From contig CAJQHR010000056.1 of assembly GCA_905478225.1 (NCBI GenBank), positions 1-64,000 on the forward strand: a DNA stretch of 64,000 nt, given 5' to 3'. The position numbers and the translations under genes are program-made. Shown here piece after piece: positions 30,725 through 34,731 of the stretch. Position 1 is the first letter of the stretch; each line of letters opens with the position of its first letter. Under the pieces are notes generated by a model. That model saw only the letters and a program-made list of their open reading frames with translations, had not been told where the DNA came from and ran no database searches. The stretch comes from an uncultured Crocinitomix sp. (GTDB taxonomy: Bacteria > Bacteroidota > Bacteroidia > Flavobacteriales_D > Crocinitomicaceae).

Positions 30725-33127
30725 ATGAATAGAAAAATTAGAAAGGTAGCGGTTTTAGGATCAGGAGTAATGGGGTCCGCAATAGCTTGCCACTTTGCAA
30801 ATATTGGTTGCAATGTTCTTTTATTAGACATGGTTCCAAGAGAATTAAATGCTGCTGAGCAAAAGAAAGGACTTACATTAGAAGATAAGGCCGTTCGAAA
30901 TCGGTTAGTGAATGATTTTTTGAAAGCATCACTTAAGTCAAATCCTTCCCCAATTTATAAAAAGTCATTTGCGGATCGCATTGAAACTGGAAATTTTGAT
31001 GATGATTTTGAGGAGATAAACAGTTGCGATTGGGTGATTGAAGTAGTCGTGGAACGGCTGGATATTAAGAAAATCATCTTTGATAAGGTTGATAAATACA
31101 GAAAACCAGGCACATTAGTTTCTTCGAATACATCTGGTATTCCAATTCACATGATGCTAGAAGGGCGAAGTGAAGATTTCCAAAAATATTTTTGTGGGAC
31201 TCACTTCTTTAACCCGCCGCGTTATTTAAAATTGCTAGAGATTATTCCAACACCAAAAACAGATCCAGCTATTGTGGATTTTTTCATGCATTACGGCGCT
31301 CGTTTTTTAGGAAAGAAAACAGTATTATGCAAAGATACCCCGGCGTTTATTGCGAATAGAGTTGGGGTATATTCTATTATGTCATTGTTTCATTTAGTAG
31401 ATGAAATGGGATTGACGGTGGAAGAGGTTGATAAATTAACGGGACCAGTTTTGGGTAGACCAAAATCGGCAACTTTCAGAACATGTGATGTAGTTGGTTT
31501 GGATACATTGGTTCATGTTGCCAATGGTGTTCATGAAAACTGCCCTAATGATGAAGAGAATGCCCAATTCCAATTGCCAGATTATATCGGGCAAATGGTT
31601 GAAAAAGGTTGGTTAGGATCAAAGTCTAAGCAAGGGTTTTATAAAAAAGAGGTTGTTGATGGTGAAAAAGCAATTTTATCACTTAATCTTAAAACATTAG
31701 AATATGAAGGAAAATCGAAAGTGAACTTCCCAATATTCGCGCAAACCAAAACAGTTGACGATTTAGCCACGCGAACTAAAATGTTGTTCGGAGATAAAGG
31801 CAGAGCAGGTGAGTTTTATCGCAAGGCTTTTTCTGGCTTATTCGCTTACGTTTCGAATAGAATACCAGAAATTTCTGACGAATTACACAAAATTGATGAC
31901 GCATTAAGAGCTGGTTTCGGTTGGGAATTAGGACCGTTCGAAACTTGGGATATCGTTGGTGTTGAGAAATTCATGGAAGTGATTAAGGCACACGGCAAAA
32001 CCGTTTCACCTTGGATTCAACAAATGTTAGACGCTGGAATCAAATCGTTTTACAAAGTAGAGAACGGTGTCAAAATGTATTATGACATTGCTGCAGGTGA
32101 TTATAAAGTCATTCCTGGAACAGAAAACTTATTGTTTATTGAGAACCTTAGATCAGGCAATACTGTTTGGGAGAATAACGATTGTCATTTAATGGACATA
32201 GGAGATGGAATTTTGAACCTAGAATTCCATACCAAAATGAATACAATTGGTGGCGGAGTGCTGCAAGGAATAAATAAAGGAATCGATTTAGCTGAAACAG
32301 AATATAAAGGATTAGTCATTTCTAATAACGGTCAAAACTTCTCTGCTGGTGCAAATGTTGGATTGATTTTTATGATGGCTGTGGAGCAAGAATATGACGA
32401 GTTAAATTTTGCAATCAAGCAATTTCAAGATACCATGATGCGTATTCGCTATTCATCATGTCCGGTAATTGTTGCACCGCACAATATGGCGTTAGGCGGA
32501 GGTTGTGAAATGTCCATGCACGCAGATAAGGTAATCGCTCATGCTGAATTATACATGGGACTAGTTGAATTCGGCGTTGGTTTAATCCCAGGCGGTGGAG
32601 GAACTAAAGAGTTTGCCAAACGTTTTTCTGATAACATGAAGCCTGGAGATGTCCGCATCAATAGATTCAGAGATAGCTTCTTGACAATTGGTCAAGCACA
32701 AGTATCTACCTCAGCTTATGAAGCATTTGATTTAGGCTATTTACGTGTAGGAATTGATGAAGTAGTCGTTGATCGCGATTATCAATTAACGAGAGCGAAA
32801 GAAGCATGTTTGTCATTACACAACGGTGGATATACGCAACCAGTAAAAGCAAAAGACATTACAGTCCTCGGCCAAGAAGGTTTAGGAATTGTATATGTTG
32901 GTGCAGACACAATGGCGCATGGAAATTATATCTCGGAACACGATAAATACATTTCCGAAAAATTAGGCTTTGTATTAGCGGGTGGCGATTTATCTGATTT
33001 AACGAAAGTGGATGAACAATACTTGCTGGATTTAGAGCGCAAGGCGTTTTTGGATCTCTGTGCGAAGAAGAAGACATTAGAAAGGATACAGTCGATTGTA
33101 ACGAAGGGTAAGGTATTAAGAAATTAA
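30725..33127 (+). CDS. 3-hydroxyacyl-CoA dehydrogenase/enoyl-CoA hydratase (FadB/FadJ-like, reversed domain order)
   Basis: An 800-residue bifunctional beta-oxidation enzyme. The N-terminal NAD-binding domain has GSGVMGSAIACHFANIG, the HFFNPPRYLKLLEIIP motif and a C-terminal dehydrogenase domain (to about residue 440). The enoyl-CoA hydratase part follows (residues 490-720) with NNGQNFSAGAN, the oxyanion residues ALGGGCEMS and the glutamate segment GLVEFGVGLIPGGGG. This order (dehydrogenase first) is opposite to E. coli FadB/FadJ and is usual in Bacteroidota. The thiolase gene follows after a small S23 gene. Confidence 0.93.
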   Translation: MNRKIRKVAVLGSGVMGSAIACHFANIGCNVLLLDMVPRELNAAEQKKGLTLEDKAVRNRLVNDFLKASLKSNPSPIYKKSFADRIETGNFDDDFEEINSCDWVIEVVVERLDIKKIIFDKVDKYRKPGTLVSSNTSGIPIHMMLEGRSEDFQKYFCGTHFFNPPRYLKLLEIIPTPKTDPAIVDFFMHYGARFLGKKTVLCKDTPAFIANRVGVYSIMSLFHLVDEMGLTVEEVDKLTGPVLGRPKSATFRTCDVVGLDTLVHVANGVHENCPNDEENAQFQLPDYIGQMVEKGWLGSKSKQGFYKKEVVDGEKAILSLNLKTLEYEGKSKVNFPIFAQTKTVDDLATRTKMLFGDKGRAGEFYRKAFSGLFAYVSNRIPEISDELHKIDDALRAGFGWELGPFETWDIVGVEKFMEVIKAHGKTVSPWIQQMLDAGIKSFYKVENGVKMYYDIAAGDYKVIPGTENLLFIENLRSGNTVWENNDCHLMDIGDGILNLEFHTKMNTIGGGVLQGINKGIDLAETEYKGLVISNNGQNFSAGANVGLIFMMAVEQEYDELNFAIKQFQDTMMRIRYSSCPVIVAPHNMALGGGCEMSMHADKVIAHAELYMGLVEFGVGLIPGGGGTKEFAKRFSDNMKPGDVRINRFRDSFLTIGQAQVSTSAYEAFDLGYLRVGIDEVVVDRDYQLTRAKEACLSLHNGGYTQPVKAKDITVLGQEGLGIVYVGADTMAHGNYISEHDKYISEKLGFVLAGGDLSDLTKVDEQYLLDLERKAFLDLCAKKKTLERIQSIVTKGKVLRN

Positions 33128-33132
33128 TTCCA

Positions 33133-33163
33133 AGATGTTAGAGGTTAGATTTTAGAAGTTAGA
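33133..33163 (+). repeat. Left inverted repeat of the S23 cassette
   Basis: A 31-bp GATGTTAGA/TTAGATTTTAGA-type sequence. It matches the reverse complement of 33514-33547 at most positions, and the S23 gene starts inside its end. Confidence 0.55.
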
Positions 33164-33165
33164 CA

Positions 33166-33519
33166 ATGCATAATTTTAGAGAGTTAGATATTTGGAAAAA
33201 ATCTATTGAGTTTTCAAAGAAAACAATTTTGATTACCAAAGATTTTCCATTTTCTGAGTTGTATGGATTAGTAAGTCAAATGAATCGTGCTTCAATCTCT
33301 ATTCCCTCTAGTATTCCAGAAGGAGCAAGTCGCGATTCGAACAAGGATTTTAATCGCTTTTTGCAAATAGCAATAGGATCAGCCTTTGAATTAGAGACTC
33401 AAATTATTTTGGGAGCGGAATTTAGCTTCATCCCACAAGTAAAGGCAAATGAATTAATAAATGAACTATACGAAATACAAAGAATGATGAACGGATTCAG
33501 ATTGAAATTAAAAATCTAA
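33166..33519 (+). CDS. S23/four-helix-bundle protein
   Basis: A 117-residue four-helix-bundle protein of the S23 ribosomal-intervening-sequence family. Signature segments are FRELDIWKKSIEFSKK, the SQMNRASISIPSSIPEGASR motif and FLQIAIGSAFELETQI. The family is related to Avd of diversity-generating retroelements and to proteins coded in 23S rRNA insertions; its function is unclear. It interrupts an otherwise tight fad operon and is bounded by imperfect inverted repeats, suggesting a mobile cassette. Confidence 0.9.
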   Translation: MHNFRELDIWKKSIEFSKKTILITKDFPFSELYGLVSQMNRASISIPSSIPEGASRDSNKDFNRFLQIAIGSAFELETQIILGAEFSFIPQVKANELINELYEIQRMMNGFRLKLKI

Positions 33520-33547
33520 GATCCAACATCTAAAATCTAACATCTAG
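33514..33547 (-). repeat. Right inverted repeat of the S23 cassette
   Basis: An inverted copy of the 33133-33163 repeat. It contains the S23 stop codon and ends 5 bp before the thiolase ATG. Confidence 0.55.
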
Positions 33548-33552
33548 TAAAA

Positions 33553-34731
33553 ATGACAACAGCATATATAGTAAAAGCATATAGAACAGCAGTAGGAAAA
33601 GCAAATAAAGGTGGATTCAGATTTTCTCGCCCAGATGACTTAGCCGCTGATGTGATTAAACACATTCTATCAGAAGTTCCTCAATTGGATCATGAGTTAA
33701 TTGATGATGTTATTGTAGGGAACGCAATGCCGGAAGCCGAGCAGGGGTTAAACGTGGGAAGATTTATCTCTTTAATGGGGTTAGATACCAACAAAGTGCC
33801 GGGGATGACTGTGAATCGATATTGTTCTTCTGGAATTGAAACCATGGCTATCGCAAAGGCTAAAATTGAAGCAGGTATTGCAGATGTAATTATTGCAGGT
33901 GGAACGGAATCAATGTCTGCCATAGCAATGGGAGGTTGGCGCGTTGTTCCTAATGCCAAAATTTCTAAAGACCATGCCGATTGGTATTGGGGAATGGGAA
34001 ATACAGCAGAGGAAGTTGCAAAACAATTTGATATCTCTAGAGAGGCGCAGGATGAATTTGCATTCAATTCGCATATGAAGGCTTTGAAAGCTATTCAGGA
34101 TGGAAAGTTTACGGACGAGATCGTTCCAATTAATGTGAATGAAGTTTATCTTGATGCCAACGGTAAAAGAGCCGAACGCGTAAACACAATTCGTGTTGAT
34201 GAAGGCCCTCGTTTGCGAACAACGGTTGAAGCGTTAGCAAGATTAAGACCAGTATTTGCGGCAAACGGATCGGTGACTGCAGGTAATGCTTCTCAAATGT
34301 CGGATGGCGCTGCATTTTGCCTAATGATGTCTGAGGAAATGGTTAAAAAATTGAATTTAGAACCTATTGCACGCCTCGTATCTTACAAAGTTGTTGGCGT
34401 ACCACCACGAATTATGGGGATTGGACCTGTTGAGGCCATTCCTGGTGCTGTGAAAATGGCTGGTTTGCAAATGAATGATATCGATTTATTTGAATTGAAC
34501 GAGGCATTTGCGTCACAGTCGTTAGCGGTTATTAAAGAAACGGGAGTGAATCCTGATATTGTAAATGTAAACGGTGGAGCAATTGCTTTAGGGCATCCAC
34601 TAGGTTGCACAGGCGCAAAATTATCTGTTCAAGTAATGAGTGAATTAAAACGCCGTAACGGTAAATATGGTGTTGTTACTATGTGTATTGGAACAGGACA
34701 AGGAGCGGCAGGTGTAATTGAAATGATGTAA
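33553..34731 (+). CDS. Acetyl-CoA C-acyltransferase (3-ketoacyl-CoA thiolase, FadA-like)
   Basis: A 392-residue thiolase that cleaves 3-ketoacyl-CoA with CoA in the last step of beta-oxidation. The nucleophilic Cys91 is in NRYCSSG, His in NEAFASQS context and GHPLGCTGAK, and the second Cys in CIGTGQG. It pairs functionally with the FadJ-like protein upstream. GNAT starts 2 bp after its stop. Confidence 0.95.
   Translation: MTTAYIVKAYRTAVGKANKGGFRFSRPDDLAADVIKHILSEVPQLDHELIDDVIVGNAMPEAEQGLNVGRFISLMGLDTNKVPGMTVNRYCSSGIETMAIAKAKIEAGIADVIIAGGTESMSAIAMGGWRVVPNAKISKDHADWYWGMGNTAEEVAKQFDISREAQDEFAFNSHMKALKAIQDGKFTDEIVPINVNEVYLDANGKRAERVNTIRVDEGPRLRTTVEALARLRPVFAANGSVTAGNASQMSDGAAFCLMMSEEMVKKLNLEPIARLVSYKVVGVPPRIMGIGPVEAIPGAVKMAGLQMNDIDLFELNEAFASQSLAVIKETGVNPDIVNVNGGAIALGHPLGCTGAKLSVQVMSELKRRNGKYGVVTMCIGTGQGAAGVIEMM

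What the first reader, a model, noticed from the sequence alone, without database searches (positions are those of the whole stretch)
33133..33547. S23 gene as a mobile cassette with inverted repeats
The S23/four-helix-bundle gene interrupts fadJ-fadA, which are otherwise adjacent in beta-oxidation operons. It is bracketed by about 31-bp imperfect inverted repeats of GATGTTAGATTTTAGA type. The left repeat precedes its ATG and the right contains its stop, so the repeats define a compact unit of about 415 bp. Mobility of S23 genes by such repeats is, to my knowledge, not well described.
Basis: partly seen in the sequence, partly recalled or inferred. Interest (0 to 1): 0.6.

Follow-up and report, generated by a model that had tools for sequence, protein, structure and literature searches.

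The report
Heptad-armed S23 cassette between fatty-acid genes
A small gene of unknown function (S23) sits between two fat-burning genes inside a cassette with matching seven-base-repeat ends; cassettes of the same build are gained, lost and swapped at such gene junctions in many bacteria and look like the long-known inserts inside bacterial ribosomal RNA genes, which gives a puzzling gene family a testable common anatomy.

Summary
The S23 gene (PF05635) at 33166-33519 lies between fadJ and fadA inside imperfect inverted arms (33128-33163 / 33515-33550). (1) The arms are degenerate tandem heptads. Across 98 non-redundant S23 units in several phyla, each unit's arms match each other (z 29 against re-paired arms), although the motif differs between units. 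Period-7 arrays are about 14 times denser beside S23 genes than in random non-coding DNA. (2) The anatomy equals that of S23-bearing intervening sequences of 23S rRNA (Azospirillum here, Coxiella published). (3) The fadJ-fadA junction is a turnover site: of 67 junctions, 26 hold S23, 18 are empty, 17 have a short insert, 6 another ORF (five IS200-like/RAYT). In Chryseobacterium/Kaistella, three S23 lineages, 39-56% identical, occupy the site between genes 90-99% identical. sdhA-sdhB is a second such site. 'Mobile cassette' is supported as a unit of gain, loss and replacement. The mechanism is unknown: no mobilising enzyme, no target-site duplication recognised, no G-U excess that would show RNA-level selection. 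S23 is under purifying selection. I call it an IVS-like element outside rRNA.

The parts
30725..33127 (+). fadJ-like gene (3-hydroxyacyl-CoA dehydrogenase/enoyl-CoA hydratase), upstream neighbour
33128..33163 (+). left arm: degenerate heptad array (core 33139-33163), inverted relative to the right arm
   Evidence: the repeat finder I1/I2; heptad periodicity of S23 flanks
33166..33519 (+). S23 / 23S rRNA-intervening-sequence-protein gene, 117 aa
   Evidence: PF05635 full length, E 6e-35; nearest solved chain 2gsc
33515..33550 (+). right arm: inverted heptad array; contains the S23 stop codon
   Evidence: the repeat finder I1/I2; terminal stem in the fold of 33120-33560, z -2.4
33553..34731 (+). 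fadA-like gene (acetyl-CoA acyltransferase), downstream neighbour
   Evidence: ORF list; synteny in relatives

Best explanation
The 415-423 bp stretch is an S23 cassette: an S23 gene carried inside two arms of degenerate tandem heptads that are reverse complements of each other. It has the anatomy of the S23-bearing intervening sequences (IVSs) of bacterial 23S rRNA, but lies at an operon junction instead of an rRNA helix. Shown here: the shared anatomy; gain, loss and replacement of whole units (gene plus its own arms) at fadJ-fadA; recurrence of such units at sdhA-sdhB; sense orientation in tight operons; purifying selection on the protein. Inferred: S23 is read from the host operon's transcript, the arms fold into a long stem with the ORF in the loop, and a double-strand ribonuclease such as RNase III (as for rRNA IVSs) cuts it out without harm to the neighbouring messages, so that operon junctions, like rRNA helix tips, are permissive sites. 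Also inferred: spread is by rare DNA-level insertion through unidentified machinery, plus swapping of junction alleles by recombination in the conserved flanking genes.
For: Arms of 98 non-redundant units match their own partner far better than re-paired ones, 17.3 vs 10.1, z 29. S23 genes vs 632 control ORFs: inverted-repeat score >=15 in 61% vs 3.6%, p 2e-19. Period-7 arrays 1.75 vs 0.13 per kb. Same arms around an S23 ORF inside the Azospirillum 23S rRNA gene; Coxiella IVS has S23, a 28-bp stem and GACAGAT heptamers (PMC4990558). Junction classes in 67 fadJ-fadA junctions. Three S23 lineages at 39-56% identity between near-identical neighbours. Relic junction in G034. Second junction sdhA-sdhB. 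Homology of units in different contexts ends near the arms. dN/dS 0.04-0.17.
Against: No excess of G-U over A-C mismatches in the arms (96 vs 89), so RNA-level selection on the stem is not shown. AU tests do not reject a single origin for the junction S23s. No target-site duplication and no mobilising enzyme found. No processing or movement was observed; both are by analogy. About 39% of S23 genes in the control set score under 15, so some lack clear arms.
Confidence: 0.7

Rival explanations
1. S23 is an ordinary, inherited operon gene that helps regulate beta-oxidation; the arms are its own regulatory hairpin, and patchiness reflects loss plus fast evolution rather than movement.
For: S23 recurs in the same operon over an order, always in sense. 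The copy downstream of fadA in Chryseobacterium is conserved with its arms in about 20 species. Purifying selection. One junction (G034) looks like loss. AU tests do not reject one origin.
Against: Sister species with fadJ 99% and fadA 98% identical hold S23s only 40% identical with different arms, whereas within a lineage S23 keeps pace with the other S23 copy. The same kind of unit sits at sdhA-sdhB, on plasmids and inside rRNA, which a beta-oxidation role would not predict.
Confidence: 0.17
2. It is a conventional small transposon (MITE-like) with terminal inverted repeats, moved in trans by a transposase encoded elsewhere.
For: Inverted ends, compact size, filled and empty sites, an IS200-like/RAYT cassette at the same junction in Chryseobacterium.
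Against: Ends differ between units and are internally repetitive, unlike transposase-recognised termini. The genome-wide search with the left end gave only short partial hits. No target-site duplication recognised. Insertion is strongly sense-oriented in tight operons, unlike most transposons.
Confidence: 0.08
3. Heptad arrays are a general intergenic repeat of these genomes and merely happen to flank S23 genes.
For: Solo heptad arrays exist, e.g. (CTCTAAC)n at G000 C41:17071-17118 and related tracts at C4 and C40, and heptamer repeats are published for cyanobacteria, Bacteroidetes and Beggiatoaceae (PMC4679880).
Against: About 14-fold enrichment beside S23, essentially only at periods 7-8. 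Both arms of a unit share one motif in inverted order. Related cassettes in different contexts keep their arms. The same arms occur at an S23 gene inside rRNA.
Confidence: 0.05

Closest known systems
Intervening sequences (IVS) of bacterial 23S rRNA that carry an S23 ORF (Coxiella, Leptospira; Azospirillum here)
   Same: S23 ORF in sense orientation between complementary terminal arms, heptad repeats in the arm, 415-470 nt, patchy distribution, fixed permissive sites
   Different: Lies between protein genes, not in rRNA; RNase III cutting not tested; S23 under purifying selection, whereas the Coxiella ORF is reported as decaying and probably not expressed (PMC4990558)
REP/RAYT elements (IS200-like transposase with flanking hairpins)
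   Same: Small gene bracketed by inverted sequences at the same fadJ-fadA junction in Chryseobacterium; solo repeats elsewhere
   Different: No Y1 transposase domain in S23; arms are locus-specific heptad arrays rather than one genome-wide REP motif
Intergenic heptamer repeats of cyanobacteria, Bacteroidetes and Beggiatoaceae (TAACTGA repeats, PMC4679880)
   Same: Seven-base tandem units, intergenic, patchy over the same groups, suspected horizontal spread
   Different: Described as direct repeats of one motif without any S23 link (the terms S23, 23S rRNA and four-helix do not occur in that paper's main text)
Avd proteins of diversity-generating retroelements (from own knowledge: structural relatives of S23)
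   Same: Four-helix-bundle pentamer fold expected for the family
   Different: No reverse transcriptase or variable repeat was recognised near the window gene, though no dedicated search was made

Membership tests
PF05635 23S_rRNA_IVP / S23 protein family | full-length match over the curated cut-off | tested here: met
   120 bits against a cut-off of 33.8, profile 1-106 of 106
23S rRNA intervening sequence (IVS) | located inside an rRNA gene | tested here: not met
   lies between fadJ and fadA; therefore called IVS-like, not an IVS
23S rRNA intervening sequence (IVS) | complementary termini able to form a long stem around the ORF | tested here: met
   arms 36 nt at 78%, core 25 nt at 88%; terminal stem in the fold, z -2.4
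23S rRNA intervening sequence (IVS) | S23 ORF and heptad repeats in the arm (ORF-bearing class) | tested here: met
   S23 ORF; heptads here and in Azospirillum IVS, Coxiella (PMC4990558)
23S rRNA intervening sequence (IVS) | excision from the transcript by RNase III | not testable with these tools
   needs transcript mapping
DNA transposon / MITE | terminal inverted repeats shared by copies of one family | tested here: not met
   inverted ends exist but the motif differs between units; the left end gave only short partial hits in the genome
DNA transposon / MITE | target-site duplication | tested here: inconclusive
   none recognised; the left border often falls at the fadJ stop codon and no strain-level filled/empty pair was available
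REP/RAYT element | Y1 (IS200-like) transposase gene | tested here: not met
   the window protein hits only PF05635
Diversity-generating retroelement (Avd-type S23 relative) | linked reverse transcriptase and template/variable repeats | not tested
   the ORF list of the neighbourhood was read only by eye; no dedicated search was made

The most novel reading that the evidence does not exclude
S23 proteins are the active partner of a previously unrecognised, pan-bacterial class of mobile hairpin element whose ends are self-matching heptad arrays; rRNA IVSs are the copies that landed in rRNA, and the scattered solo heptamer arrays of cyanobacteria and Bacteroidetes are its footprints, much as REPs are footprints of RAYTs.
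Probability: 0.25. Interest if true: 0.87.

Novelty: new variant of a known kind. Interest (0 to 1): 0.68.

Why it matters
rRNA intervening sequences and their S23 ORFs have long been called selfish elements of unclear origin, and intergenic heptamer repeats have been reported without a known source. Showing that S23 genes outside rRNA carry the same heptad arms and turn over as units at fixed operon junctions (fadJ-fadA, sdhA-sdhB) joins the two puzzles. It supplies many natural filled/empty pairs, among them culturable Chryseobacterium species, in which mobility, processing and effect on operon expression can be measured directly.

Tried and rejected
One fixed repeat family: rejected, because the genome-wide search with the left end gave only short partial hits and solo heptad tracts. 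Single-origin test for junction S23s: not rejected by AU, so multiple origins rest on the identity contrast and on species incongruence, not on the tree alone. RNA-level selection by G-U versus A-C mismatches: negative. Heptad arrays as a feature of S23-carrying genomes in general: solo arrays were found in 100-kb samples of two of four S23-rich genomes and in none of four S23-free ones, too few to decide. No relative of the window protein in the phage collection. Literature searches for S23 units outside rRNA found none in the open library; most subscription papers were not searchable. No structure prediction was run, because the fold of the family is already solved (2gsc).

Full report
CHECK OF THE OBSERVATION. 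In the window, a fadJ-like gene ends at 33127, an S23 gene occupies 33166-33519 and a fadA-like gene begins at 33553, all on the + strand. The protein is a full-length match to Pfam 23S_rRNA_IVP (E 6e-35); its nearest solved relative is 2gsc, Xanthomonas XCC0516. Inverted arms lie at 33128-33163 and 33515-33550 (36 nt, 78%; core 25 nt, 88%). The left arm stops just before the ATG and the right arm includes the stop codon. The left arm can be read as heptads with one shorter unit: GATGTTA GAGGTTA GATTTTA GAAGTTA GA. The unit folds with a terminal stem, z -2.4 against shuffles.

NOT CHANCE, AND NOT ONLY HERE. In 20-kb regions of related genomes, 41 S23 genes had inverted-repeat scores between their flanks with median 16, against 10 for 632 other ORFs of the same regions (>=15 in 61% vs 3.6%; p 2e-19). 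Several of the highest controls are immediate neighbours of S23 genes and share an array with them. Pairing each unit's left arm with its own right arm gives 17.3 on average, against 10.1 after re-pairing arms among 98 non-redundant units (z 29). For 22 non-redundant fadJ-fadA units alone the values are 17.5 and 11.1, with no permutation of 10,000 as high. The self-match of the flanks peaks at lag 7 (and 14, less at 8). Period-7 arrays occur at 1.75 per kb beside S23 against 0.13 per kb in random non-coding DNA, while periods 5, 6 and 9 are practically absent in both. So the arms of S23 units are inverted heptad arrays, alike within a unit and different between units.

THE SAME ANATOMY IN OTHER PHYLA AND IN rRNA. 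The plasmid collection's S23 relatives are nearly all cyanobacterial, and several carry inverted heptamers: GGGAGTA in Nostoc edaphicum, GGGAACA in Nostoc sp. C052, GGGAAGA in Geminocystis. A Desulfobacterota unit (L216) and Gemmatirosa (L222) have strong arms too; in Gemmatirosa the arms read as octads. In Azospirillum lipoferum plasmid AZO_p2 the S23 ORF lies inside the 23S rRNA gene (LSU at 2286-5484 of L221), between 36-nt arms 86% complementary, made of heptads such as GAGGACG GATGACA GAGGACG. The published Coxiella intervening sequence is 428 nt, has an S23 ORF, a 28-bp terminal stem and tandem GACAGAT heptamers before the start codon, and is cut by RNase III (PMC4990558). The window unit thus has the anatomy of an S23-bearing rRNA IVS, at an operon junction.

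THE fadJ-fadA JUNCTION TURNS OVER. Of 67 junctions read in relatives and in Chryseobacterium/Kaistella, 26 hold an S23 unit (gap 419-658 bp), 18 are empty (1-41 bp), 17 have a short insert (65-181 bp) and 6 another ORF. S23 is in sense orientation throughout. Five of the six other ORFs are an IS200-like/RAYT gene bracketed by GAGCTCCGTAGGAGCGA-type hairpins (one tested, PF01797 E 2e-27). In G034 the junction lacks S23 but keeps a right-hand array clearly related to that of its congener G014, which reads as a relic of loss. Within Chryseobacterium/Kaistella three S23 lineages occur, each with its own arm motif. Between lineages the junction S23s are 39-56% identical, while fadJ is 90-99%, fadA 94-99% and the second S23, downstream of fadA, 70-98% identical; within lineages the junction S23s are 56-88% identical. 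L195 and L198 are the clearest case: junction S23 40%, fadJ 99%, fadA 98%. L198 and L203 agree at 88%. The window's own genus shows the same contrast (S23 45-58% with fadA 87-97% for most pairs, but 95% for the pair G004/G006). The AU test does not reject one origin for the junction S23s of either group (p 0.28, 0.15), so independent arrival is likely but not proven by the tree.

BORDERS. In 16 of 26 filled junctions the fadJ stop is TAG, against 4 of 41 others (Fisher p 1.5e-5; the junctions are not phylogenetically independent). In several filled junctions the heptad array starts at the G of that stop (e.g. TTA GACTTGA GACTTAAA GACTCGA in L198). The left border is thus at or inside the stop codon in several lineages, which would hide a short target-site duplication. 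None was recognised.

A SECOND JUNCTION AND OTHER CONTEXTS. S23 units also sit between sdhA and sdhB in nine of the relatives by coordinates. Four of the junctions read in full (G013, G057, G042, G037) have gaps of 447-495 bp with heptad arms close to the sdhA stop, against 6-121 bp in unfilled ones; the window's own genome is unfilled there (21 bp). Another unit lies between genes that I read as carA and enolase in G012. Pairs of related units are alike from about one arm to the other and little beyond: Nostoc C052 vs Geminocystis plasmids, Stanieria vs Nostoc HK-01, two sites in genome G034, Trichormus vs Aulosira. The annotated neighbours of the first two pairs differ.

FUNCTION AND MECHANISM. 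S23 is under purifying selection in junction and downstream copies (dN/dS 0.04-0.17; a few pairs have saturated dS), so the protein matters to the element or the host. In tight gene contexts S23 nearly always points the way of its neighbours, which fits expression from the host transcript. Left arms are purine-rich in 49 of 60 units (p 8e-7), perhaps because they double as the leader of the S23 start. The RNA hairpin and its cutting by RNase III are inferred by analogy with rRNA IVSs; mismatches in the arms show no excess of G-U over A-C (96 vs 89), so selection for RNA pairing is not demonstrated. How the unit moves, and how its two arms stay matched while the motif changes, is not known; arm-to-arm templating at a DNA hairpin plus heptad slippage is my conjecture.

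VERDICT. Movement by means of the repeats is unproven. I class it as an IVS-like S23 element outside rRNA, a new variant of a known kind, not as an IVS (location not met), a transposon (no shared ends or enzyme found) or a RAYT (no Y1 domain). I found no paper that describes it in the open library, which leaves out most subscription journals.

Noticed in passing
L189, L191, L193, L197, L205: between fadJ and fadA: An IS200-like/RAYT gene (PF01797, one copy tested) bracketed by GAGCTCCGTAGGAGCGA-type hairpins occupies the junction that S23 units occupy in sister Chryseobacterium species; others (L186, L192) hold short REP-like hairpins alone.
   Followed up: partly
L184-L205, L211: about 40 bp after fadA: A second S23 gene downstream of fadA, with conserved AAAGAATAAAGAG-type arms, is inherited stably across about 20 Chryseobacterium/Kaistella species, unlike the junction copies.
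   Followed up: partly
L263, L268, L287, L139: between sdhA and sdhB: A second core-metabolism junction with S23 units in some relatives and short gaps in others.
   Followed up: yes
L005 about 1500-1550 (G000 C41:17071-17118); L008 and L011 near 1500: Solo heptad tracts without S23 in the window's own genome, e.g. (CTCTAAC)n, some interleaved with a GATCACTGCG-like word.
   Followed up: partly
L173 1501-1860 (Pseudanabaena galeata plasmid pPg_01): An S23 gene lies between cas6 and cas4 in a CRISPR locus; a published CRISPR survey lists 23S rRNA IVP among domains in a figure legend (PMC10910872).
   Followed up: no
L126 (G044) between fadJ and fadA, gap 679 bp: A different, unidentified 132-aa ORF plus a further short coding-looking stretch occupies the junction.
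   Followed up: no
S23 units with clear arms, several phyla: The left arm is purine-rich relative to the S23 strand in 49 of 60 units, so the two arms have a fixed polarity towards the gene.
   Followed up: partly
fadJ stop codon at 26 filled junctions (L082-L132, L190-L204): The stop is TAG in 16 of 26 filled against 4 of 41 other junctions, and its G is sometimes the first base of the heptad array.
   Followed up: partly
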